This document shows, in pieces, positions 10,818-32,650 of a stretch of 64,000 nucleotides of DNA. Below the pieces are notes generated by a model. That model was not told where the DNA came from. It saw only the letters and a program-made list of their open reading frames with translations, and did not search any database. Every line of letters begins with the position of its first letter. The stretch's first letter is position 1. The translations under genes and the position numbers were made by a program. This DNA is from Eutreptiella sp. 'Long Island Sound 2002' (lineage: Eukaryota > Euglenozoa > Euglenophyceae > Eutreptiales > Eutreptiaceae), in NCBI GenBank assembly GCA_964036045.1, contig OZ038391.1:39412232-39476231 (forward strand), written 5' to 3'.

Positions 10818-13800
10818 ATGCCATCGAAATCCAGAGCCAGCGTACAGGTGCTTGTACGATGCCGACCCTTCAACGCACGAGAGGAAGCAGAGGGGGAAAA
10901 GGGTTGTACCCAGGTGATGCAGGTGCAGGGCAACACGGTTCGGATGTTCAACCCGAAGAAAGATATGGAAGCCGTACGCGAAGAGTTCGTTTTCGACCAC
11001 TGCTTTGACAGCACACGCAATGGGCGTAACGACCAACAGATCGACGTGTACCAGAAGTTGGGGCCACAGATACTGGACAACTGCACATCTGGTTACAACG
11101 CCTGTCTCTTTGCATATGGACAAACAGGTATCTGTTCCGTGAACTTAGGTCCTTCTGGCTTGAAGCGCTGGATGTACCTCCTCCTTCACTTGTGTGTCAG
11201 GTAGCGGGAAAACTCACACGATGCTGGGCAACATCGACGACCCAGAGGCGCGCGGAGTCATTCCTCGTCTCATGGACGAGCTTTTCGAAAGAATCGAAGC
11301 CAAGAAGCAAGAAGCAGGTGTTGCAACGTTCAAGCTTGAGGCAACATACATGGAAATTTACTGCGAGAAAGTGAAGGACCTTCTCGTCAAGTCGTCGGAC
11401 GACTTAAAGGTTCGGAGTACGCCTGACAAGGGGGTTTTTGTCGAGGGACTGACTTCTCGTAAGGTGGAAAGCTCCGCAGAGATATATAAGCTTTTGAGTG
11501 TTGGCGCCAAAAACCGAGCTGTAGCCGCGACTGCCATGAATAAGGACAGCTCGCGGTCGCACGCAATATTCACGCTCGTTTACCAAGAGACTTCGTTTGC
11601 CAGCAGCGGTGACCATAAAGTTCAGACCAGATCCAAAACTAGCCATATGTACCTGGTTGACTTGGCTGGAAGTGAACGCGTTGAAAAAACTGGGGTGTCA
11701 GGGAGCGGTCTGGAAGAAGCCAAGAAGATCAACCAGTCCCTGACTACGCTGGGCAGAATCATTGACATGCTGGCCAACCGGAAGCCCGGGACGAAGTGCC
11801 CGCTACCAGTCCGAGAGTCGACGTTGACTTGGTTACTCGGGGACAGCTTAGGTGGCAACAGTAAAACCATCATGCTTGCTGCTATTAGCCCTTCAGCGTC
11901 GTCGTACGACGAGACCATCAACACTTTGAGGTATGCTGCTCGCACGAAGTGCATCGTTAATGAGGCTTCCGTCAATGAGACGGTGGACATGAAGCTGATG
12001 GACGAGTTGCGTGGCCAGATTGACGAGCTGCAAGGAATGCTGAAAAGTCAAAACGATCTCAGAGGACAACTTCAAACCAATGAGGAAAAGATGCAAGCGT
12101 TGGAGCAGATGTTGGAGCAGGAGCGTTTGGCAAAGGAAAAAAGTGACGCTGAGCTGCGGGAACGTGCCGAAAAGGAGAAACAGGACTTGATGGAGAAGCT
12201 GCAACTTGAAAAAGAACAGGTCGAGGAATACCTTTCAAAGGAGCGTCAGGAACTGCAGGGAAAAATCGCAGAGCAAGATGAAACGATCGCTCAATACGGC
12301 AGAGAGAAGCAACTGCTGAAAGAGCAATTTGAACGTGCTCTTCGCGACCTTACCAACCAAACCATGCGAGAGAAGCAGGAGTTGCAAGAGAAGTGCAACA
12401 GTGTTTCTCAGCACGCAACCAAGCTGGAAACCATGGCGGCAGACCAAGAGAAAGCCCATGCTAGTGAAAAAAGTACCTTGGAAGCTCAGATCGAAGATTT
12501 GAACAAAAAGCTGACAGGTGTGCAGCAAGACCTATCCTTTCAGCAGCAACGCTGGCAGCAAGAAAAGGAGTTATTCGACCAAAAAGTCGCTTTCAGCACA
12601 CAGAGGGCCGGGGACATTGAAAGTGATTTGCAAAAGAAAATCGCGCAACTCGCAAAGGCTAGAGAAGAGTTGGAAGCTCATCACGAAGCTGAGCTGGCCA
12701 AGACGGATAATGCCAGAAAAGCGAAGATTGCTGAACTCAAGGAGGACCACGAGCAAGCGGTGAAAGCCATGCAGCAGCTCAATGACGAGCGTTTCCAAGC
12801 GTTGAAAGCAGAGATGCAGCAGCAACATGACGCCTCCAAACAACGCGCTTCAGAGCAGCAAGAGGCTGCCGCAAAAGAGCGCGAAAACACGGAAGCGACA
12901 TATAAAGGGAAGATTGCTGAGTTGAAGGCTGAGATCCAGCAGCAGCAAGATACCAACAACCAACGTACACTGGAACAGCAAGAGGCCGCAGCAAAAGAGC
13001 GCGACACTTTGAAAGCGCAAATTGCCAAGCTGAAACAAGAGTACGAGCAGGAGTTGGAAGCGAAACAGAAGCAGGGCCACGAAAAGTCCCAGCAATTGGA
13101 GGCAGATATGCAGCAGCGGCACGCGGCCGAAAAAGAGCGTTTGCTGGAGCAACATGAGGCAGCTTTAGGAGCTGTCAAGCAGCAGCACGCCGAGGAGTGC
13201 GGTCGCCTGAAACAGGCGCACCAAGCGTCGACGGATGAGCTGCAAAGCGTCAAGTCTGCCCTGGAAGCGACTGAAGCTGACTGCAGCAAAGCAAAGCAGT
13301 TGCATGCGCAAGCGCACAAACAGCTGTGTGCGGACCGCCAATCGCACGACGAGGAGACAGAGAAACTGAAGGGGAAATACGCGCAGGATGTGGAGCTGGC
13401 AAAGAAGCACTACGAAGAGGAAGTGCAGCGCGTTTTGCAGCAACAGGCGGAGGCTGTCAAGGATGCACAGAAAAAGGGCGAGAGTGCGGTGATAGATGCC
13501 AAAAAGAAGTTTGCCGAGGAGCTGGAAAAACAAAAGAAAGATCAAAAGAAAGCCCACGATGAAACACTTGCTGCTCTGCAGGGGAAAATAGATACTCGCT
13601 GGGAGCATCAGAGGCAGGAGCACAACAGAGATTTGGAGAGCCAACGTAGACAACATGCTCTTCAGGTTGAGAGCCTTGAAGCAGCGCTTGCTGATGCCCA
13701 AGGCCAGCTTGCATCAGTTCAGGAAGAAGCCGACAGGACGAACGATATGAGCAAAGCATACATTCGAGACTATCAATTGAAGTATCAGAACCTTGAGCGA

Positions 13801-14415
13801 AAGCACACTGACGAGATGGGCAATTTGGCTCAAATTATTACCACCCTCCAACGGTTGTTGCACAAGCAATTAGATGAGTCCAAACGAACCGAAAATGAAC
13901 TGAAGGCTCATCAGCGTCGTCTCGAGACCACCCGAACGAGTGCGGCCAAGGATGCACAAGACCTTCTGCAACTAATGCCACAAGAGATTCAGTTTGCGCT
14001 TCAGCTCAAGAGTCCTCGGGTGGACTCAACACCTAAGAAACCCGATTCACCCTTCTTCCTTCGGAGAAACACATCGCTATTGGATTCTGGGTCTCCCTTG
14101 AAGTCCCCGAACATGACCCCTAAGTCTCCGATGATGACCCCCCCGCAGAAAGATGGAATTGTGAGTCCAACTGGCCTGCTCCGACATGGCGCAGAGGACA
14201 TTGGATCCCCTGATATCCTGCGCACCTACAACAAACTAAATCCAAGTGGCACTCCGACTTCACAGCAACGCACCCTTAAATCACCCTCCAGCTACCATGA
14301 GGAGGAAGAGGACAGTCTCGACAACACGATGGGGTCGTTTAACGCAGGTGACAGCTCACTTGACACCCATCCTGATGAAGTGACCCGCACTGAATTTTCC
14401 CTCAATCTGTTTTAA
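10818..14415 (+). CDS. N-terminal-motor kinesin with long coiled coil and SP/TP-rich tail
   Basis: Microtubule motor ATPase of 1174 residues from two exons (10818-11127 and 11201-14415), split by a 73 bp GT-AG intron inside the P-loop codon. The start MPSKSRASVQVLVRCRPFN matches kinesin motor N-termini; an in-frame ATG at 10641 would add an unconserved leader. Motor landmarks are P-loop GQTGSGKT (residues 101-108), switch I NKDSSRSH (217-224) and switch II DLAGSE (257-262), followed by LTWLLGDSLGGNSKT. The motor ends near residue 357 with RYAARTKCIVNEA, somewhat like kinesin-3 neck sequences. A long Glu/Gln/Lys-rich coiled coil covers roughly 365-1030. The last 140 residues hold about a dozen SP or TP sites, suggesting regulation by proline-directed kinases. 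No FHA, PH or other cargo domain is visible, so subfamily and cargo are unknown. Confidence 0.95.
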
Positions 14416-21200: not shown

Positions 21201-24200
21201 TGTTGAGTGTAGCACTGCAATGCGATCAATGAGGCATCAGTGAAACAGCAGGTGGATATGGAAGCCCCCCTGTTGCGGCCGTTTTGAACACCTCTGCTGA
21301 AATGGGGCAGGGGTGCCAAACCCAGTAATGCTGTGCCCCCAATCCATCGAATGGAATGATAATAAAGAATCTGTTCGAAAATTGTGGGGGGATATTAATT
21401 GCAGTAAGCAGCGACCCTGTTGAGAGAGGGCCCAAACCCTTTTGCTTGGAGGTTGCAAAAGCCACTCTGGGGCAACACTATGCCACAAAAGACGTTTTAC
21501 GTTATCCTTGGCTGCCTTACAATGCTTCCCTTTGTCTCCTTGCCACCTTGGGAACATTCCTCCCTGCCCAGAGGGGAAACAAAGCAAACACCAGCCCACA
21601 CATGTAGAGCCAATATGCTACATGCATTTTGACGTCCAAAGACAGTGCAAAAAATTTACAAAGCACCAAAAAAAGATTTGCTGTAACAAGCAGGACCATG
21701 CAAAATGCTACAAAATTGAGCAGATTGATGCAGCACTGGCTGAACACTCTATCAAACAGAGAGGAAAGTATACCCACCACCAAATGCTTGGGCTGTGAGC
21801 ACTTGCGTGTCTGCCCATATTGACCATATGCCCTTCAGTCATTTGGTCTTTCTGTACATACCGGATTAACCTTGTGCTGGTTGTGCATATCTGCTTTGTT
21901 TCTGTGCTGTATGGCATACCCCCAATGTGCAATCTGTAGTGCAAAAGACACTGGTGATGAGACCTGTTGCACATGCTCGTCTCACATGCCACATTTATGG
22001 CAGTTCCTCGAAGGTCATGAAGAATGAAATCAGTGGAATATGGAGTGCAAAAGGACACTGGCAGGTCGATTGTTTGGCCTCCTTCAAAGGCTTCATGACT
22101 GTCACCCCTTCCTTGTTGCCTATCACTGATGATGAGTATGATTGCAGCACTCACCCACAGACACCGAGGGGGAAGGGGTATCGTGAAAGGGACACAGACC
22201 CGTTAGTGCGCGGGGGAAGGGGCTATTTGGGTGGAGGGATGGGTGGGTGGGTGGGTGGGTGGGTTGGCCACAAGCCCCCCCTTCCCCGCAGAGGTCATTA
22301 AGCGATGGATTGGCTGTGCACTGGCTGCCACGCCGTCCAGAGGATGTGCATGTGTGGCACGCAGCTTGAAGGGTCCTCTGTTTTTTGGCTGCCTCAACCC
22401 GCCGCTGATGGACAAACAGAGCCCATGGGACCAAAACAGGGGCTTGGCGGACATTTCAATGGACAATGGGTGACCATTCGGGTCCCGTGAATTTTCATTA
22501 TGGCACTTCTGATCGAACCCACATCCAATCTGACCCACAAAACTGCATCCCACGCACCCCCTCCCCCCCTCACAAACGACCTTGATCAACAAAAGCAGGC
22601 CACACAAAGGATATGGCATTCAATACCATTTGTCCGACACGGTGCCTCCCCAGTTCTCGCCCCCTTCCCCCCTTCACTGCTCAAAGGCTGGCAAAGCGCT
22701 TGCCAGTGCCCCAAAAGTGCGATCCGACGGGATTGCGGTCTGTCGACAAGCCCGACAATGGAGGGGGTACGCGTGCAACACCATTCCAGACTGCGCCCAG
22801 CCTTCGCCTCCCACCTGCCGCCACACCATCCTCCCCTTCCTGATCCTGTACTCGGCCCTCAGCCGTGGTTGCTCCTAACGGCCTCTGGCCACACGTGCCA
22901 CAGGGGAGACTGTGTTTCAGCGTAATTCTGGACCCCATCCTCCGCAGCGAGCGAAAAGGGGGGGGGCAGCAGCGTTCGGAAGAGAGGGGCCAGGGCGTCG
23001 GGAAGAGAGGGGGTGGGGGGGGCTGCACAACAACAGTGGCGTAGACCTGTCGGCTGGAACTTCCGCTTTAACGTACTTGGGTGTGTTTAGGGGGGGAGGG
23101 TGGCAATATTCTACTTCTTTTTCAGGCATATTTGATTTCCCCATGAAACTCTGAGCATTTTGGCCCTGAAGCGGGGGTAAATTTGCAAAAACCTTCCATC
23201 ACTTTCGAAACTTCATTGTGACGCGAAAAAAACGTGCTGCTGCCTCTGAGCGTAGGTATTGGGATTCTGGAGGAACACTGAAACATCCCGCTGAGACTCG
23301 CTGGGTCTGTGTACCGCAGGCCATCTGAAACCCCCGAACACCTACTCCCACAATCACACACACACGATCACACACAATCACGCACAGGACCGCCGCACAC
23401 CGCATGACGAGACACCCCACCTGACCCACCCCTCAGGCAAAGAAAAATGAGAGCCAGATACGGTTAAGAGACTGTCGAGCTCGCGTACGGTTTGATAGCG
23501 CCATGCGCCATCCCGCGCCTTAGTCCAGCGGCACTACCAAACCAACAGCTGTCAATAGAGGCTCATCTTCCTGATCCGCTGTCGGTAAATGAGCGCAGAC
23601 GGCTCGGTAAGCATCGGGAGCAAGACCGGCAGCGGAAAGGAGGGGCAAAAAAAAACCCAGCGAAGACAAGAAGAGTGATGTCCCCGGGGTCATGGAGGCC
23701 CAGTGGACGAGGAGGGAGGGCGCTGGCCCCCAACACCACGTAATTGTGTCCAGCTTCAACCCCCGACCCGCAGCATGACACATTACTCTGCATTGTACAG
23801 CGACCTTGACACTCGGGCTCTGCCATCAGTCGGGGGGAAGGGGAGCGGGGGCGCCTGTAGTCCCCAGTCCAACAGTTTGCCCAAGCTTTCATGGCCCAAA
23901 ACATAGCGCACGCCTCCTTGGGAGAGAGTCTGAGCGTGCATGCGCTGTAACAATCAGAACTGTCGCCACACAAATTAAACATTGTGGCTGAACTTGCCAC
24001 TTTCTGGCTCAGACTTCGCGCGCATTTTTTGTGGGGCAGTCCGTTACTACTACAGAATACCACAGAAAACACACGCCCTGCACTCGTAGTGCAGGCTCGC
24101 GCCCTTCGCAGTGCATTAGAGAGGGTGGCGTTTTGCTTCAAACTAACTGGACATCTCCTTAGAATCAGGGATTCCAACGACGCAGGGGCACAGTAGTAAC

Positions 24201-24211
24201 GCGGCCGGGCC
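21201..24211. other. No gene recognised
   Basis: Mixed-composition sequence downstream of the coronin-CAP stop. Several open frames exist (for example plus 21356-21607 and minus 23563-24177), but none could be joined to a neighbour or matched to a family. Undetected exons remain possible. Confidence 0.35.
22238..22265 (+). repeat. (GGGT)n tract, G-quadruplex-forming pattern
   Basis: Seven consecutive GGGT-like units give more than four GGG runs with 1-base loops, the classic intramolecular G-quadruplex pattern. Confidence 0.7.
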
Positions 24212-26034
24212 TCAGGCCTTGTGCTCGGTCGGCACTGTCACCAGCTTTCCGCCCACAATCTTGGTGATGTACTGCTCTGGTAGAGCCCCTTCTACCGGAT
24301 CCTCCCCCTCCGCTTTGGGCGGCATCGTGACATTCACCCCCGTACTCGCGCAGGTCGTGATGGACGTGGTCTCCATCGCCTCTTTGGAGAGGAACACCAT
24401 GACATCATGGCTCTTCTCAACGAAAGCGCAGGGCATATTGCCGCTTGTTTGCAGCTGCACACCGCTGCTGTTTGTGACGTCCACGGAGGCAATAACGCTT
24501 GTGAACATGATATCCACCTTCTTGCACGCCACAACCTGGAATGATGTGGAGGATAGCGGAGGGTTGCGGACTGTCGTGGAGGGCTGTGGGAGGGTTGTGA
24601 GAGAGTAGTCTAAAGACAGTGGGGTGCCATGGAGTGTTGTGGAGTGTTGTGGGGGGTTGTGGAGGGCGGCGTAGGGCGCAATGGTGTCCCTGCCAAACAT
24701 TTTGTTCCCCTTTGTGGTGACAAACCGGGGGGAAATGGGGGAAAGTAGGGGAAAACAGGGACATGCAGTACTCGTTACTGGTGCTTGTTCCGGTTCCACT
24801 GGTGGTTGTAACGTTGTGGTACACATGGTGCACTGATGCTTGTAATGTTATCTCTGGTGATACATATGGTGCACAAACCTCATGTGCAGCATGTTGTGCA
24901 GCAGCCCCCACGGCAGCCCCCAGGGCAATACTTCCCACGTCCACCACCAATTGAACCAATGTCAATCACAATCTCAACATCGGTTCCTTGTGCTTGGCCA
25001 GCGTACCACCAGAAATCCAATCCGTCAGAAAACTGATCTTCACGTACCAAACATCATTATGTTGCACAAAATTTGACATCAATGTGATAACATGCAGGGT
25101 GGAGGTAACAACAACGAAAACCAGAGAACCATGATGAGCACAATCCCCAAAAAGATAAATCTTCCCAATGTTCCCACCATTTCCCCCAATTTTCCCAATC
25201 CCCTCCCCGCCCCTGGTTCCCCCTGTCCCCCCGCCCCCCCGGGTTTCCTCCCCTTTGCTTCCAGATTTCCTGTCTCCCAACATTTCGCCTTTGCATTCGC
25301 CTTTGCGAATACTTTGTGGTGTCCTGAGGTGTCCTTGATTTTGGACACCATCGACCCCTGGCGGTGGGGGTGTGCAGGCTTGTGGAGGGTAGGAGAGGAT
25401 TGTAGGGGGGTTGCAGAGCGGAGTGCAGTGTAGTGGAGGGTTGTTGAAAATTGTGAAGTGTTGTGCGTTGTGGTGGGCAGGCGCAAATGAGCCATGCCAC
25501 CCATTTCAGGGGTCCGCATGTAGCACACCCCACGGGGTTGAATTGGTAATGTTGTTTTCTGTGCAAAATTATTAATCCACGAGAGACAAAAATTCCCAGA
25601 TTCCTGTTTCGAAATTGCCCCACAGCCAACCCCTTGGATTGACAACCCCATTTTTGTCGCGCTAGGTGGGGCAAGGGGGGCAAAAACAGCTGGCCCAAGG
25701 GCTGCAGAGATTGTATGGCCCTGGAAGAAGTGTGCGGTGGCAGCGAGCTGAAGAAACCTGGACAGAGTTGACCTTGCCCTTCACCTCCACGAAAGCGTTC
25801 TCGCACTTGTACACGTAGACGCACTGGTGGTTCTCCAGCTGCCCCTCTTCCAGCACCACGTTCTTCTTCTCCATCCGCGTGCCCTTCTGCTGCTCGATCT
25901 CCCATGTCTTGTAATCCACACACTCCACACGGCCCTTAGGCTCCTCTTTAGCGGGGGCGGGGGCGGGGGCGGGGGCAGGAGTGGGCGTGGGTGCCGTGGG
26001 TGCGGGTGCTGGGGCTGTGGGTGCTGCAGGTGCT

Positions 26035-26111
<77 letters not shown>

Positions 26112-29100
26112 GGTGGGGGCAGGTGCTGCAGGAGCTGACGCGGGAGCCTCGATGGAGCCGCCCATGCCCTGCAGCTTGTCCTCCTCCTGCTTCAGCTGCT
26201 CCTTCAGTTTGGCCACCAAATCCCTTTGGGCCAGCAGCTCTGCGGAAGGCTTTTTAGCGGCTTTCGGGACATAGGCCCCCGTCGGGGCAGCCCCTGCCCC
26301 CCGGTCCTCGGGGTTCATGCTCATGCGAAGGGGCTCGGCGCTCTGCCCCGCGAAGAACGCGCTGGCGCCGAGGGCCGGGGTCGTGGAGAATGTGGGCGGG
26401 TAGATATCGGCCTGGAACTCCGTGGCGGCCTGTTTGCGCGGGCACACGAACGCCAGGGGGACCACTTGCTTGTCTTCCAGCTTCAGCATGCGGAGGACCT
26501 GGACGTGATATGGGCTGTGCAGGGGCATGCGGGGGTACGTGGGGGTTTACAAGGGTGTGCCCACAGTCGCGGGCGGTGGGCGAGGCCACCCGTTTTGATC
26601 ACAGCAAATGTTATTGAGGTGCCTCGGAGCACCATCGTGCAGGACCGTTGTGCACCAATAAATGTACCACAGCCAAACCGCGTACAAAAATGCCTTCAAA
26701 AGTCGCACGCACAGGTACGTGACGTTCACGGGGGTGCGGGTGTGCGGCGGCATATGGGTACATTGTATGCGGGTGCAATGCACAGCGGTGGCACTTCACA
26801 GCGTTTACAAGCCATCAACAGCGGTCCTCAAGCGCAGACAAAATGGGACCATGCCTACTTTGTTCTGTGGTGTGTGTAGAACGGGTGAAAGGAGCAGAAA
26901 CAGGGCTGAAGTTGAGCAATTTGTTTTTTGTTGACTTCCACTTTACTGTAAATTCGTTGCCATGGGTAGGGACCACAGCCAGGTAAGGGGCAGGGGGTTT
27001 TCGGGTTTGACGTATGCAGTAGGGGGCAGCGCAGCGGCCGCACCGCCCCACATCGGGCCTGAGATTTCTATTGCCGGGATCATCCGAAATAGGGATTTGC
27101 AAGTTGAGTAGGGGGCAGCTGATGAGGGGTCAGCCCAAGATGGGGTTTGCAAATCCGGTAGCCCCCTACTTATGGAAACGAATTTATAGTCCCCAACAAA
27201 TGCGCACATGACACGCCGACGGTTGGCGGTTAATCCCAGAGGGCTGTCCTTAAAGGCTGTCCTTAGCACAAAAGAAAGGGGAAAAACGCGTTGATTAAAG
27301 ACAGTCCTGGGCAGAAGTGCGAGGCAGAGGAAGAGGGATTGACCTGTCCAGTTACCCCTCTCCGCTTGTCAAACATACGGCCACGTGCCAAATCAATGCG
27401 GTACACATACGCCCTGTCCCTCAGACGGGGCGTACTGGACGCAAACGACTGCAACTTGTGTTCTATCGCCCCCGGCCCACGACGAAGTGTACGGGAGCCA
27501 AATTGGTGGAGGACGGTCCGCCAAACCACAACAAAACCCGCGTCGCACAGCGAACGAACCGAAAACGCACACAAACCGGGCGTCTTGGCCCACACCCAAA
27601 AATCGGGATCGAAAAGCAATCACGTCCCAAATTCATCCGATACAGACACTCTCCGTATCTTGTACAAGCGTTGTCCTGCACAGTGGGGGGGGGGGATGGC
27701 TAGTACGACATTAAGGTCAAAAGGGCACGCATACCTCGCCTGAACCCTACCACCAGACTTCTGCGCCTATTCCATGAACCGCTCCCGCAACGACCACATA
27801 GACGGTACCCACATGGGAGGCTGAGGGTTCTTATCACGGCATTACCTACGTTATAATTCACAATGAAACTACTTTTTTCATCAGACTGAGGTACGCAGCA
27901 GCACAGGGCACGCAGCTTTGCAAAGCAATGTAACCTGGGCCTTCTTCGTGTCGCAGGCGATCTTGGGAAGGCAGCACAAGCCACGCTGCGGCGTCTTCGA
28001 GCCAAACTCTGTGAGCATGTTCAGGGGCGGGTCGTGCTCCCAGAGGTCGAACACTCGGATGTTGCCGTCGCCCTTGCCGCCGACGTACACCAGCCCTGTG
28101 TCCTCATCAACAAAGGCCATCAGCACGCCACTCTGCGTGTCCAGCTCGTGCTCGTAGATAGGCTTAACCAGATTGCGTGGGTCCCAAACGTGGATCTGCG
28201 CCGAGGGGAGGACGAGGCAGGGCAATGCATCACCACTGTCCCCAGAGCATGATGACTTAAAGCACAAGAAAACACTTGCTGCCTTGAGGGCTCGACGGAA
28301 AGCGGGGGGCTAAAGGGTGGTTCAAGAATGGATGCAAAAGCGGTTACCAGCCGTTGGGAAGGCGTTTGGGGGCTATTTCAGCAGGAGACAAATCGGTGGA
28401 GGGCCGTGGGGCGCGGGCAAAAGCAATTAGCGGGGCTGACCGTCACCACGGCAGAGGGTTAGCCGTCCGCCCGTCCAAGCGTACGCCTAACTGCCGCATA
28501 AGTGTGTGTGGAGGTGCAAAAAAAAAAAAAAAAAATCCCCCACCCAACCCACGACACTGCCCCACATCTACACACTTACATATCTCGGACACATGGCGGA
28601 AAAGAAAACCACCACCTTCACAAAACAGCGAGGGGTCCACTGCAACGTCAGGCTTTCTGTCATGTTCCTGTCGTGCCGCCTGCTCTGACATAAAACTGTG
28701 TATTCAGCACCGGTTCCACTTAGCGTTCCCAGGGTCCATGTGAGTTCAAAAAAACACAGGCGCCTCTCTGTCACGCATGATCAGGACCTAAAGCGGCAGT
28801 TGACGAACGATACGGAACGAGCCAACGTTTGCTGGCGCGGGTCTGTGTGTTGGGGACCAGGCCAGAGCCTTTGCATTGGCAATTGACCGCGGTTGATGGG
28901 CTGTCCTCAGAGCAACAAAAAAGAAACCGAGCCACAACAGATCGCCACAGCCTTGAAACCAAAATGGATGAGGTATCGGCCCCGACCATCGGGCAGGAGG
29001 CTCATCCATGGAAGCCGGATATTATGGACGCCTAGTGGGCAATGTAGGCAGGGCCACCCCAGGCCGCTGCACAGGGACAAAGGGCCGGCAGAGGCGGCCA

Positions 29101-30715
29101 AGCACACAAGCAGACCTGCCGATCCAACTGCTTCCCAAAGCCCAGCGTCAGGATCTGATTGCGCACCTTGGCCCAGTACGCCTTCTGGGCCTTGGAACCG
29201 GGATGGGCTGGGGCCTGCGCAGTAACCCCTCCCCCGCGCGAGTCCACGACACGGAGCTGCTTGTCCTTGGCACTGGTGCAGAGGCATGTGCCATCCAAAT
29301 TCCAGTCGAGACTGAAGATCTGGTCCATGTGCCGGTCCAGGGACAGCTGCGGGGCTCCCTTTTCGATGTCCCATAATTTGATGGTGTGGTCCATGGAGGC
29401 CGAGGCCAGCACATGCTCCGCCGAGGGATGAAACCGGAGGATACCCACCTTCTTGCCGTGCCCCTAAACCACATTACGTAGGATCACAGGCACTGCTACG
29501 CGGCGACACGCAAAAAAGGAAGAGCTCAGGCCCTGCCCTGCACAGCTCAGCATCAGGCATTTCTTGCTGAGGAACCATGGTTTCAAAAAGCGTCTTGGGC
29601 TTTTGCTCAATGTGCTTTGGACCTAGTTTTTGGACCCTTCTTTCAAAAAGAGCATCGAAACTTGAGTCCAAATCCTGTGAATTATATTGTGCATTTCTAA
29701 GTGCAGATGGAGGCGCAGGGCTGGGCCCGAACACTTGAACGCCATGGGCCAGACCGAAACGGTGTGGTGTCGTTCTCCTGCGGGGCTATCCGTCTGGAGG
29801 GCGGGGTGTTCCGTAAAGGCTGGTGGATTACCGCGTGTACGGCCCGCGTCCAGGGCTTTTGCACCTTTCGTCAGGGCTGGGGACTGCCAGAATGGCGTGG
29901 ACTGATCCGGCAGGGACAACCCCACACCCATGACGCAATGGTGGGCTCCCTGTGCAGAGCTTGAGGCATGCGTGGCATGAAACGAAGCGCTGTAGCTTTG
30001 TGTATTAAAGCTCGTTTTTTCAATACAACCTCCAATACAACCTCCAATACAACCTCCTATACAACCAGCATCCTGTGCGGGGGATTCGTTGTATCACATC
30101 TAGTTTTGTGGACACGTGGTTCCCGAGACAGATGTGAGCCAGGACCCCAACGATAGCGGCCTCTGGCAACCCATGCTGCAGGGCATTGGCCGGTTTGGAT
30201 CAAAACTCACCATAAATCACGGAAATTCCATGGGAGGTCAAACGTAGCTTTGCCCGCAAATCAGCTGGGGATGAGCCATCTCGTGCTGGAGATCCCGGGT
30301 GCGATGAGGGAGAAGGCACTTGGGGCAGACTGAAATGGCACACCTCCAACGTCTGGACAGCTGTCTCCATGTTCTCAGTAAGGCCAGTCTCAGGAATGCT
30401 CCAAATGCGGACCGTCGTGTCTTCTGATGCGGTCGCCAGCAGCATCTCATTAAACGGGTGCCACTGCCAGTCTAAAACCGGAGCCGTGTGCCCTACGACC
30501 CCCGGCGGATTGCTCGGCATTTTGCCGGGCTTGTCGTGTGGCAGCACCGCCACTTTGCCGCCTCCGCCCACAGCCCAGGCCATGGCAAAAAAACGGCTGT
30601 TGGCTGCCAGGAAATTGCTGCAGTCCCAGATTGTGGAGCTGCAGCGCGTGTCCATGAACGCCTCCTGCGGTCGTGGTGCCTCCGCGAACACATGCTTGAA
30701 CTTGGAGGTGGGCAT
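24212..30715 (-). CDS. Coronin-CAP fusion protein (WD40 propeller plus C-terminal CARP domain)
   Basis: Predicted actin-filament turnover factor of 681 residues. Five exons join in phase 0: 30715-30344, 29463-29116, 28195-27935, 26498-25758 and 24535-24212; introns are 880, 920, 1436 and 1222 bp, all GT-AG. Residues 1-390 are a coronin propeller: SKFKHVFAEAP at the N-terminus, GHTAPVLDWQWHPFNE, SEDTTVRIWSIPETGLTENM, SASMDHTIKLWD, SAKDKQLRVVDSR, then VGGKGDGNIR, TPQRGLCCLPK and DIYPP of the conserved C-terminal blade region. A short coiled coil (about 412-437) is followed by an Ala-Pro linker (445-515). Residues 516-681 match the CAP C-terminal beta-helix domain: VYVYKCENAFVEVKGKVNSV, VVACKKVDIMF, MVFLSKEAM and PEQYITKIVGGKLVT. 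The CAP helical-folded and WH2 regions are absent. Known roles are actin/Arp2/3 binding for coronin and ADP-actin nucleotide exchange for CARP; joint action is inferred. Confidence 0.93.
26038..26110. repeat. AGGAGC hexanucleotide array inside the coronin-CAP exon
   Basis: About 12 copies of a 6-base unit that on the minus strand encode alternating Ala-Pro. The array forms the pure core of the linker between the coronin and CARP domains and is the part most likely to vary in length between individuals. Confidence 0.95.
28520..28536. repeat. A homopolymer in coronin-CAP intron 2
   Basis: A run of 17 A residues within the intron, which would be a T-run on the transcribed minus strand. No function is implied. 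Confidence 0.85.
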
Positions 30716-32650
30716 GGCAAAGAAAATGAGAAAGGCTGAGAGAAGGGAGATGAGAATTGTAAGCGTAACAATGTGCTGATCCCTTTGATGGAAGGGCCAC
30801 AGAAATCATTGGTGTTCAAGGGCCCGCCGCCACCAGGAGCCGGAGCGGTCAGGGCGCCTTCCCTTGCCTCCCTGAGTGGGATAGCAACGCAACCCACACA
30901 CAGCGTCGTTTTTAACCAACCAAGAACAATACCGTGCCAACTGTTTGAGAAGCTCTCAGGCATCATATGCTCTCAAAGTAAAAAAAGAGTTGAACGGGAA
31001 GATTTCTCTTTTCTGAACAGGGTTGGATGCACTCCGCAGCTGCCACACCAGAGGCCATTCCCAAACTCATCTCGGGAATGAAACAATCTACACGCAACTG
31101 ATCAGGCGGACAACATGTCAGGAATCTTGCAATACAGATAATGAATGTGAGTCCCAACCGCGGTTTCATCTGCTCACAGAACCAAGACCCTCGTGCAAGA
31201 GGGATGGGCTTTTGCGGAGTTCTGTTATCCAAAGTGAAAATATTTGGCATGCTGCCCTACAGGCGATGGGGATGCTACACTGGCCAAAGCCTCTCCCTTT
31301 GCAGTGCCCATGTTGCATTTTCGCAATCATTTTTTTGCCCTTCCCCATGAATCAGCTGTGGCACGCTTGGCACGCAGACAGGGCCATTGTGTCTGATTTC
31401 TGCAGAGGCATCGTCCAGCCGTCCAACTGACTGGTCCAGTCTTCCCCACGGGGGCAGTACTGCCTTTGGCAAGGTGGGAGGGTCCCGCCGAGCCACAGCC
31501 ACAAGTAAGGTGCAGGGCGCTCGAGTATGACGCGCCAAGGGCCATTGCTTGCACTCGGACATTTGTCGTTGTTGCACGCTGTGTTGAGTATGCGGTAGTC
31601 GCCGGTCAGCCGATCCGGGGGAAACGTGAGTGCAAAGGTTCGAAAAAGACTGGGAGGTCATATTCACCTGGAAACCTCCCCCCCCCCCGCCTTGCTCAAA
31701 GACCATTGCCACTGGATCTTGGCAGAGTTCTTGAGGGGCAGGGCGTGGGTTGTTGCGTCACAGACTTGGGGGGGGCAGGTGAGTGGGTCCCATGTCCCAA
31801 TAAAGTGTCAACGAAACAAGGCTGGTCGGGGAAGGGGTGGAAAGGTGCAAAAATAACCCTGGCACAAACGCAAAAGTGGCAAATGGTGAAGCAGTCACAA
31901 AGATTCGTTACGAACGACCCGATAGGTTGTGGCGTTTAGTGGGCACAAAGGAAGTGGTTACTTGGGTACCCAACTGCGCCCATAAATCACTGTTACGTGG
32001 CCATGTTGGCGCAGGCAATTCAATGGCATATAATGCCGCACGCTAGGTACAATCGGTGCATCAGCCAGCGCGTGCTATGCCATACCACCGCACAGGTTCT
32101 GTCCCATAGCAGGTGACCCACGGAACCTTGCAGGCAACATCGAATCAGGCACCACAAGGGTGCTGGGAAAAAAGAGTTGGATGCCTGCGCCCATAACTCT
32201 CCTTACGTGGACACATTCAATGTAGAGCTCTGGGCTTGGTGGACCCTTGACACCAATGGATGACAAGCAAGATTGTGCGTGCAGGAGTCGTGCATGAGGT
32301 TGCACACATGCGGTTGCACCTTGGAAGCAGGAATCGTTGAAAGTCAACACAAGCCCCACCAGGCTTGGGAGAAAAAGACTGGAGATTGCGGGACCATCGT
32401 AGTGTGTATATACATCATTTTTACATGGCCACGTGTGGATGTCAAGCCCCGTGTATTTTGTACTTGATCAAGTATTCGATGATACCTAGCACGCACGAAA
32501 TCGTGCACAAGGTTGGACCCGGACCGCTGCAGTATGCCACGGCAATTTGTTGAAAGTCAAACCCAGCAGCACCAGGCTAGCGAAAAAAATGTGGGGTGTA
32601 TAAGCGTGCGTGTAACTCCATGGCGTGCGCCCGCGTGCATGCGCATGCGT
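30716..32650. other. No gene recognised
   Basis: The upstream flank of coronin-CAP. Open frames on both strands (up to 157 codons) lack motifs and could not be joined into a gene. The coronin-CAP promoter should lie near 30.7-31 kb. Confidence 0.4.

What the first reader, a model, noticed from the sequence alone, without database searches (positions are those of the whole stretch)
24212..30715. Coronin fused to the CAP actin-binding (CARP) domain
One 681-residue protein combines a complete coronin propeller with the C-terminal beta-helix of cyclase-associated protein. Coronin, cofilin and CAP normally act as separate partners in filament disassembly and ADP-actin recycling, so a fusion would place filament binding and monomer recharging in one molecule. 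The fusion is directly visible: exon 26498-25758 holds both coronin C-terminal blade text and CARP text in one frame. CAP's helical-folded and WH2 parts are absent. I do not recall this architecture being described.
Basis: partly seen in the sequence, partly recalled or inferred. Interest (0 to 1): 0.92.

Follow-up and report, generated by a model that had tools for sequence, protein, structure and literature searches.

The report
Coronin–CAP actin recycling fusion protein
A single-celled eukaryote, probably a euglenid, carries a gene that joins a complete coronin, which binds actin filaments, to the part of another protein, CAP, that reloads spent actin subunits; a sequence from another species has the same fusion, so two normally separate steps of actin recycling may be combined in one molecule.

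Summary
Five minus-strand exons (GT-AG introns, all phase 0) encode a 681-residue protein: a complete coronin (residues 3-389, E=1.4e-100 to mouse coronin-1A), a short coiled coil, a Pro-Ala linker and a CAP C-terminal CARP domain (CAP_C 522-679, E=6e-39). Exon 26498-25758 holds parts of both in one frame. A 714-residue EukProt protein, P0001 (Trinity-style transcript label), has the same architecture: 54% identity over its length, and 99/98 clade support for its coronin part. An assembly chimera is therefore very unlikely, and the fusion is conserved. P0001 also keeps CAP's polyproline-WH2-polyproline segment, so the original fusion was probably coronin plus the whole C-terminal half of CAP, and the window gene lost WH2. 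The 2.28-Gb host genome, probably a euglenid, separately encodes a conventional coronin and a full-length CAP: the fusion is an addition, not a replacement. Most likely mechanism, inferred: coronin holds the molecule on ageing filaments and recruits cofilin, while a CARP dimer captures released ADP-actin and promotes exchange for ATP. I found no description of this architecture in the held library (some listings were capped). New variant of a known kind: other coronin fusions, such as villidin, exist.

The parts
30344..30715 (-). exon 1: start codon, DUF1899 and first propeller blades of coronin (residues 1-124)
   Evidence: donor GTGTGC
29116..29463 (-). exon 2: coronin WD40 blades (residues 125-240)
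   Evidence: 3' boundary DRQ|IHVWDP matches the intron position DRQ|VYVWDP of the conventional coronin on contig C20
27935..28195 (-). exon 3: coronin WD40 blades (residues 241-327)
25758..26498 (-). exon 4: coronin C-terminal extension (WD40_4/DUF1900), coiled coil, Pro-Ala linker and N-terminal half of the CARP domain, in one open frame
26035..26111 (-). 6-bp tandem repeat (12.8 copies, 100% matches) that encodes the core of the (Pro-Ala)n linker
24212..24535 (-). exon 5: rest of the CARP beta-helix and the C-terminal tail TEHKA, stop TGA

Best explanation
A real, evolutionarily conserved fusion gene of Euglenozoa (most likely euglenids; inferred) made by joining a duplicated short coronin to the C-terminal half of cyclase-associated protein (CAP). 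The coronin propeller binds the sides of filaments and, as in other coronins, helps cofilin load and sever. The long flexible linker holds the CARP domain nearby; as a CARP dimer it captures ADP-actin released there and drives exchange of ADP for ATP with its C-terminal tail. In effect the filament-side half of CAP (N-CAP) has been swapped for coronin. In the window species the WH2 and the proline tract have been lost and a Pro-Ala linker expanded, leaving a CARP-only recharger, as in malaria-parasite CAP. Shown: gene structure, domains, conservation in a second sequence, coexistence with separate coronin and CAP genes. Inferred: expression here, F-actin binding, cofilin recruitment, dimerisation, nucleotide exchange, coupling.
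For: Intact five-exon gene with both domains in one exon. P0001 (EukProt, Trinity-style label, ORF called complete) has the same order and 54% identity over the full length. Coronin tree of 18 rows: window + P0001 form a clade at 99/98. P0001 aligns to CAP1 220-472 across P1-WH2-P2-CARP at 5e-49. CARP interface residues of mouse CAP1 (12 named in Table 1 of PMC5951797, passages): 7 of 12 identical (Y351, Y353, K365, N367, Q399, D446, E449), 2 conservative (L339V, Y418F), 3 changed (K347H, D372V, F447P); the genome's own full-length CAP has 8 of 12 identical and its non-conservative changes fall on the same three positions (H, Q, P) (the alignment near 347 is ambiguous because of an indel). The C-terminal tail whose deletion cripples exchange in mouse and yeast is present at the same length (EHKA against EIAG, only Glu identical; own CAP EHRA). 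Literature: CARP prefers ADP-actin about 100-fold and WH2+CARP recharge monomers (PMC10692737, passages); coronin recruits cofilin to filament sides, and the two halves of CAP work in trans (PMC10638096, passages); a CARP-only CAP still exchanges (PMC5951797, passages). AF2 model of P0001: confident propeller (Foldseek to coronin-1B on actin, 9qf2_F, TMt 0.94), helix 417-443, all-beta C-terminal region.
Against: No expression data for this species. D372 and F447, each part of a combined mutant that abolishes ADP-actin binding in mouse CAP1, are V and P here. WH2, needed for efficient exchange by mouse and yeast CAP, is absent here. A homolog search with the window's CARP gave 0 of 197 candidates at E<=0.01 and did not even recover P0001, so the breadth of the family is unknown. 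Only 1 of 32 coronin rows carries CAP_C. Host cofilin was asked for nine times without an answer; profilin and Arp2/3 were never asked for. In the Foldseek answer the 50 rows shown are led by coronins and other propellers; the CARP fold was not matched separately.
Confidence: 0.55

Rival explanations
1. The CARP domain here is mainly a dimerisation and ADP-actin tethering or sequestering module: it replaces the coronin trimer motif as the oligomerising part, and does not recharge actin efficiently because WH2 is missing.
For: The coronin trimerisation hexad (R-[ILVM]-x-x-[ILV]-E, PMC3203266 section 11) is found in a relaxed, K-first form in 3 of 4 non-fusion relatives examined (KLREME in P0003, KLAQLE in the C20 coronin, KVAEAE in P0005; not in P0002) and in 0 of 2 fusions, where the aligned residues end in Gly (KLQGMG, KLASLG) at the junction. 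Loss of WH2 function lowers exchange by mouse CAP1, and tail-deleted C-CAP becomes a sequesterer (passages).
Against: A tail of the right length is retained. Plasmodium CAP is CARP-only and still exchanges (passages). The related fusion P0001 keeps WH2. The strict R-first hexad is in none of the six rows, so its loss in the fusions is weak evidence.
Confidence: 0.27
2. The gene is a relic or lightly used duplicate with no particular coupled function; conventional coronin and CAP do the work.
For: A conventional coronin and a full-length CAP coexist in the genome; no expression evidence in this species; WH2 lost and the linker overrun by a hexanucleotide repeat.
Against: All five exons open, with coding-type codon use; identity to P0001 is kept in both halves (61% coronin; 51% CARP); 7 of 12 CARP contact residues kept.
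Confidence: 0.12
3. Assembly chimera or false gene model joining two neighbouring genes.
For: No read or RNA evidence could be inspected here.
Against: Coronin and CARP share one uninterrupted exon; an independent sequence (P0001) has the same order; the window lies inside a 59.6-Mb contig.
Confidence: 0.03

Closest known systems
Short (single-propeller) coronin, e.g. coronin-1A/1B, and the genome's own coronin on C20
   Same: DUF1899, propeller, DUF1900 extension, C-terminal coiled coil; one intron at the same codon boundary as the C20 gene
   Different: C20 coronin (447 aa) ends after the coiled coil; the fusion continues into linker and CARP and lacks the final Glu of the trimer hexad
Cyclase-associated protein (Srv2/CAP), C-terminal half
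   Same: CARP domain with most actin-contact residues and an exchange tail; P0001 also has P1-WH2-P2
   Different: No oligomerisation or helical-folded N-terminal half; in the window protein no WH2 either
Class-4 coronins (villidin)
   Same: A coronin fused to another actin regulator
   Different: Partner is PH/gelsolin/villin headpiece, not CAP (PMC3203266, passages)
Coro7 / class-3 tandem coronins
   Same: Extended coronin with an extra actin-related C-terminal element
   Different: Two propellers and a CA motif (PMC12592476, start of abstract in listing); here one propeller and CARP
Apicomplexan CARP-only CAP
   Same: CARP without N-terminal domain or WH2
   Different: Free-standing, not joined to coronin (PMC4501334 and PMC5951797, passages)

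Membership tests
Coronin (short type) | DUF1899 + WD40 propeller + DUF1900 extension | tested here: met
Coronin (short type) | C-terminal coiled coil with trimerisation hexad | tested here: inconclusive
   Helix 417-443 in the P0001 model and a matching 24-residue segment here; hexad absent in both fusions, strict form also absent in the four relatives examined
Coronin (short type) | F-actin binding | not testable with these tools
   Needs co-sedimentation
CAP/Srv2 | CARP (CAP_C) domain | tested here: met
   522-679, E=5.8e-39; 6fm2 alignment
CAP/Srv2 | N-terminal CAP_N / helical-folded domain | tested here: not met
   Not among the 25 of 34 Pfam families shown for the whole protein nor in residues 328-681 at E<=10; residues 3-389 are coronin
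CAP/Srv2 | Polyproline-WH2-polyproline | tested here: not met
   No WH2 and no run of three prolines in the window protein; none in its introns; present in P0001
CAP/Srv2 | Catalysed ADP/ATP exchange on G-actin | not testable with these tools
   Tail present, 7 of 12 interface residues identical
Class-4 coronin (villidin) | PH, gelsolin and villin headpiece domains | tested here: not met
   None in residues 328-681 at E<=10; none among the 25 of 34 families shown
Class-3 tandem coronin | Two coronin propellers | tested here: not met
   One DUF1899 stretch and one DUF1900 stretch

The most novel reading that the evidence does not exclude
A natural single-chain actin-recycling machine: a euglenozoan lineage rebuilt CAP by replacing its filament-binding N-terminal half with coronin, so that filament ageing/severing sites and ADP-actin recharging are obligatorily co-localised, with the CARP dimer also taking over coronin oligomerisation; retained in at least two species beside (in the host) the ordinary coronin and CAP.
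Probability: 0.35. Interest if true: 0.8.

Novelty: new variant of a known kind. Interest (0 to 1): 0.66.

Why it matters
Coronin, cofilin and CAP are treated as separate partners in actin turnover. A 2023 review asks why F-actin disassembly and monomer recycling are linked in one molecule in CAP (PMC10638096, passage). A second, independently built linkage, using coronin instead of N-CAP, is a natural experiment on that question and gives a simple reagent: fusion versus unlinked halves. The WH2-containing (P0001) and WH2-less (window) versions also test what WH2 contributes.

Tried and rejected
Considered and rejected: assembly chimera or neighbouring-gene read-through (shared exon; independent second sequence); class-4 or class-3 coronin; a WH2 exon hidden in an intron (tblastn noise only); a fusion replacing lost single genes (both single genes are present). 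The C24 coronin-like hit is not a second fusion of this kind (kinase domain PF03770 instead). NCBIfam gave nothing useful.

Led nowhere: third homolog search, on the window CARP, 0 of 197. Literature searches aimed at the architecture or at euglenid coronins returned no paper whose listing describes such a fusion: 1 of 1 listed; 0; 20 of 68 listed; 4 of 4; 8 of 8; 15 of 26 listed; 8 of 9 listed. Of the papers, I saw passages of PMC3203266 (plus its section 11 whole), PMC4501334, PMC10692737, PMC10638096, PMC7581878, PMC12472444 and PMC5951797; the abstract and outline of PMC5014199; for the rest listings only. Subscription journals are not held.

Not answered: searches of the host genome for cofilin (PF00241), for the Euglena spliced-leader pattern, and for PF08953, PF01213 and PF16300. 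Profilin and Arp2/3 were never asked for.

Full report
What is there. On the minus strand, exons 30715-30344, 29463-29116, 28195-27935, 26498-25758 and 24535-24212 are each a whole number of codons, are joined by four introns of 880, 920, 1436 and 1222 bases that begin GT and end AG, and encode 681 residues followed by TGA. Pfam gives DUF1899 (3-65), WD40 repeats, WD40_4/DUF1900 (339-383) and CAP_C (522-679, E 5.8e-39, profile 8-157 of 157) (best 25 of 34 families shown). Scanned alone at E <= 10, residues 328-681 match only CAP_C, WD40_4 and, below its cut-off, a coiled-coil model. By sequence, residues 3-389 match coronin-1A (2aq5, 1.4e-100), coronin-6 and coronin-1C, and residues 479-678 match CAP1 (9q7o); the CARP part alone matches 1k8f and 6fm2 at about 1e-23. 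Codon statistics trained on two other genes of the genome, this gene left out, favour the coding frame over the five other frames in 5 of 5 exons; third-position GC is 75%. A scan of the window trained with this gene included puts its exons in the top seven segments, which is partly circular.

Junction. Exon 26498-25758 reads in one frame: DUF1900 region, extension, a 24-residue coiled-coil segment (residues 414-437), a Pro-Ala-rich linker of 71 residues whose core is a perfect 6-bp tandem repeat of 12.8 copies, and the first half of CARP. No stop interrupts it.

It is not alone. A search of 5.8 billion proteins scored 7996 candidates and listed 68 with E <= 0.001. In 32 of the 68 rows the printed Pfam list shows the coronin model PF16300 (five further rows, WD40 proteins, have cut lists; the weakest rows are mostly Pro-Ala matches); 1 of these 32, P0001, also has CAP_C. 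P0001 is a 714-residue EukProt protein with a Trinity-style label, ORF called complete; the tool does not name its species. It aligns to the window protein over the whole length at 54% identity (61% in the coronin part; 51% in CARP) and has the same domain order. A search with its C-terminal region returned 4 proteins among 2790 candidates: itself and three ordinary CAPs with CAP_N. A search with the window's own CARP returned none of 197 candidates, not even P0001, so that search was insensitive and the number of species with the fusion is a lower bound.

What the relative adds. Between coiled coil and CARP, P0001 has an 11-proline tract, a WH2 motif (STAALFSQIQGAGDNITSGLRKVTDDMKVYK) and a second linker; this segment and CARP align together, in one stretch, to CAP1 220-472 (E 5e-49). 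The whole C-terminal half of CAP was therefore fused to coronin. In the window protein this segment is replaced by Pro-Ala repeats, it has no run of three prolines, and no WH2 coding remnant is detectable in window 23000-32000 (best tblastn E 0.38). Loss in the window lineage is the simplest reading; gain in the P0001 lineage is less likely because the segment is colinear with CAP.

Host. G000 has 2,280,300,865 bases in 2205 contigs; the window is C14:39412232-39476231. Its conventional coronin (C20:7705731-7708080, two exons, 447 aa when joined) is 74% and 67% identical, exon by exon, to P0003, labelled EG_transcript_8691; the in-frame stops reported inside two of these matches (one in C20, one in the window gene) lie where the matches run into flanking introns. 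I take that label, from recall, to mean Euglena gracilis, and hence infer that the host is a euglenid but not E. gracilis; no call names it. A test with the Euglena spliced-leader pattern did not complete.

Paralogs. The genome has a separate full-length CAP on C1 (878-aa open frame in one exon) with three CAP_N repeats, polyproline, WH2 and CARP, and the conventional coronin on C20, which ends after its coiled coil. The intron DRQ|IHVWDP of the window gene sits at the same codon boundary as DRQ|VYVWDP in C20, as expected if one coronin was duplicated at the DNA level; short repeats at the C20 splice ends leave a few bases of ambiguity, and the other two introns in the coronin part of the window gene are not in C20. 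A maximum-likelihood tree of 18 coronin rows groups window + P0001 at 99/98, apart from the group C20/P0003/P0004/P0002 (98/98); the order among these two groups and P0005-P0009 is unresolved. Shuffled labels gave an equally compact fusion group in 28 of 500 trials, as is easy with two rows. Under vertical descent the duplication predates the split between host and P0001's species.

Function by residues. Table 1 of Kotila 2018 (PMC5951797, passages) names 12 CARP contact residues. In the window protein 7 of 12 are identical, 2 conservative, 3 changed; in the genome's own full-length CAP 8 of 12 are identical and the non-conservative changes fall on the same three positions. These departures look like a lineage trait rather than decay, though D372 and F447 belong to combined mutants that abolish binding in mouse. 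A tail of the length required for exchange in mouse and yeast is present (EHKA against EIAG, only Glu shared). Malaria-parasite CAP, CARP only, still exchanges nucleotide, whereas mouse and yeast CAP need WH2 (same passages). A relaxed coronin trimer hexad is present in 3 of 4 non-fusion rows examined (P0003, C20, P0005; not P0002) and in 0 of 2 fusions, where it ends in Gly (KLQGMG, KLASLG); the strict R-first form is in none of the six. So CARP, a dimer in the CAP1 crystal, may have taken over oligomerisation.

Structure. AlphaFold2 on P0001 with 15 relatives gave mean pLDDT 75.8 and pTM 0.58: confident propeller, a helix at 417-443, disordered linker, and an all-beta C-terminal domain at 77-88 for residues 581-660 but 60-62 before and 37-69 after. 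Foldseek's top seven PDB matches are coronins, including coronin-1B on actin filaments; no CAP is among the 50 rows shown, and the CARP part was not searched separately. The window's own spliced protein was not modelled.

Mechanism. Shown: anatomy, conservation, coexistence with single genes. From the literature: coronin binds filaments and recruits cofilin, then AIP1 severs (PMC10638096, passages); WH2 and CARP of CAP bind ADP-actin, eject cofilin and recharge monomers, and also act at barbed ends (PMC10692737, passages); the two halves of CAP function in trans. Inferred: the fusion brings recharging to the site of disassembly. The P0001 version could also hand ATP-actin to profilin through its proline tract; the window version probably cannot.

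Known or not. Coronin fusions are known: villidin-type class-4 coronins with PH, gelsolin and villin headpiece, and tandem class-3 coronins (PMC3203266, passages and section 11). In that survey's text the words cyclase and CAP occur 0 times. Trypanosomatids are reported to have separate coronin and CAP (PMC7581878, passages). Seven library searches (three of them with capped listings) turned up no description of coronin-CAP fusions; subscription literature and domain-architecture databases could not be searched.

Verdict. Real, conserved, apparently undescribed domain architecture built from two well-known families; function inferred.

Noticed in passing
L021 981-3617 (G000:C1): The genome's full-length CAP is a single-exon 878-aa open frame with three tandem CAP_N/helical-folded repeats (3 stretches), the second and third nearly identical by eye; CAP normally has one (recalled).
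   Followed up: partly
L010 262-2187 (G000:C24:29456806-29457294): A degraded coronin-like WD40 stretch (40% to P0003) lies in one 641-aa open frame with an inositol polyphosphate kinase domain (PF03770, E 3.3e-40): possibly a retrocopy insertion or another chimeric gene.
   Followed up: partly
G000:C1490:35892-36466 (L002, L004): A third CAP_C gene, in two pieces at the end of a 36-kb contig, looking different in sequence; possibly a contaminant or co-cultured organism (not tested).
   Followed up: no
window 11164-14415 (+): Large kinesin exon (motor domain PF00225, E 2.6e-81) followed by a long coiled coil, about 10 kb from the fusion gene and convergent with it.
   Followed up: partly
C20 conventional coronin intron (L006 about 2210, L007 about 1505): GTCTA(T/C)GTCTGG occurs at both splice ends, a short direct repeat across the intron that makes the exact splice point ambiguous.
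   Followed up: no
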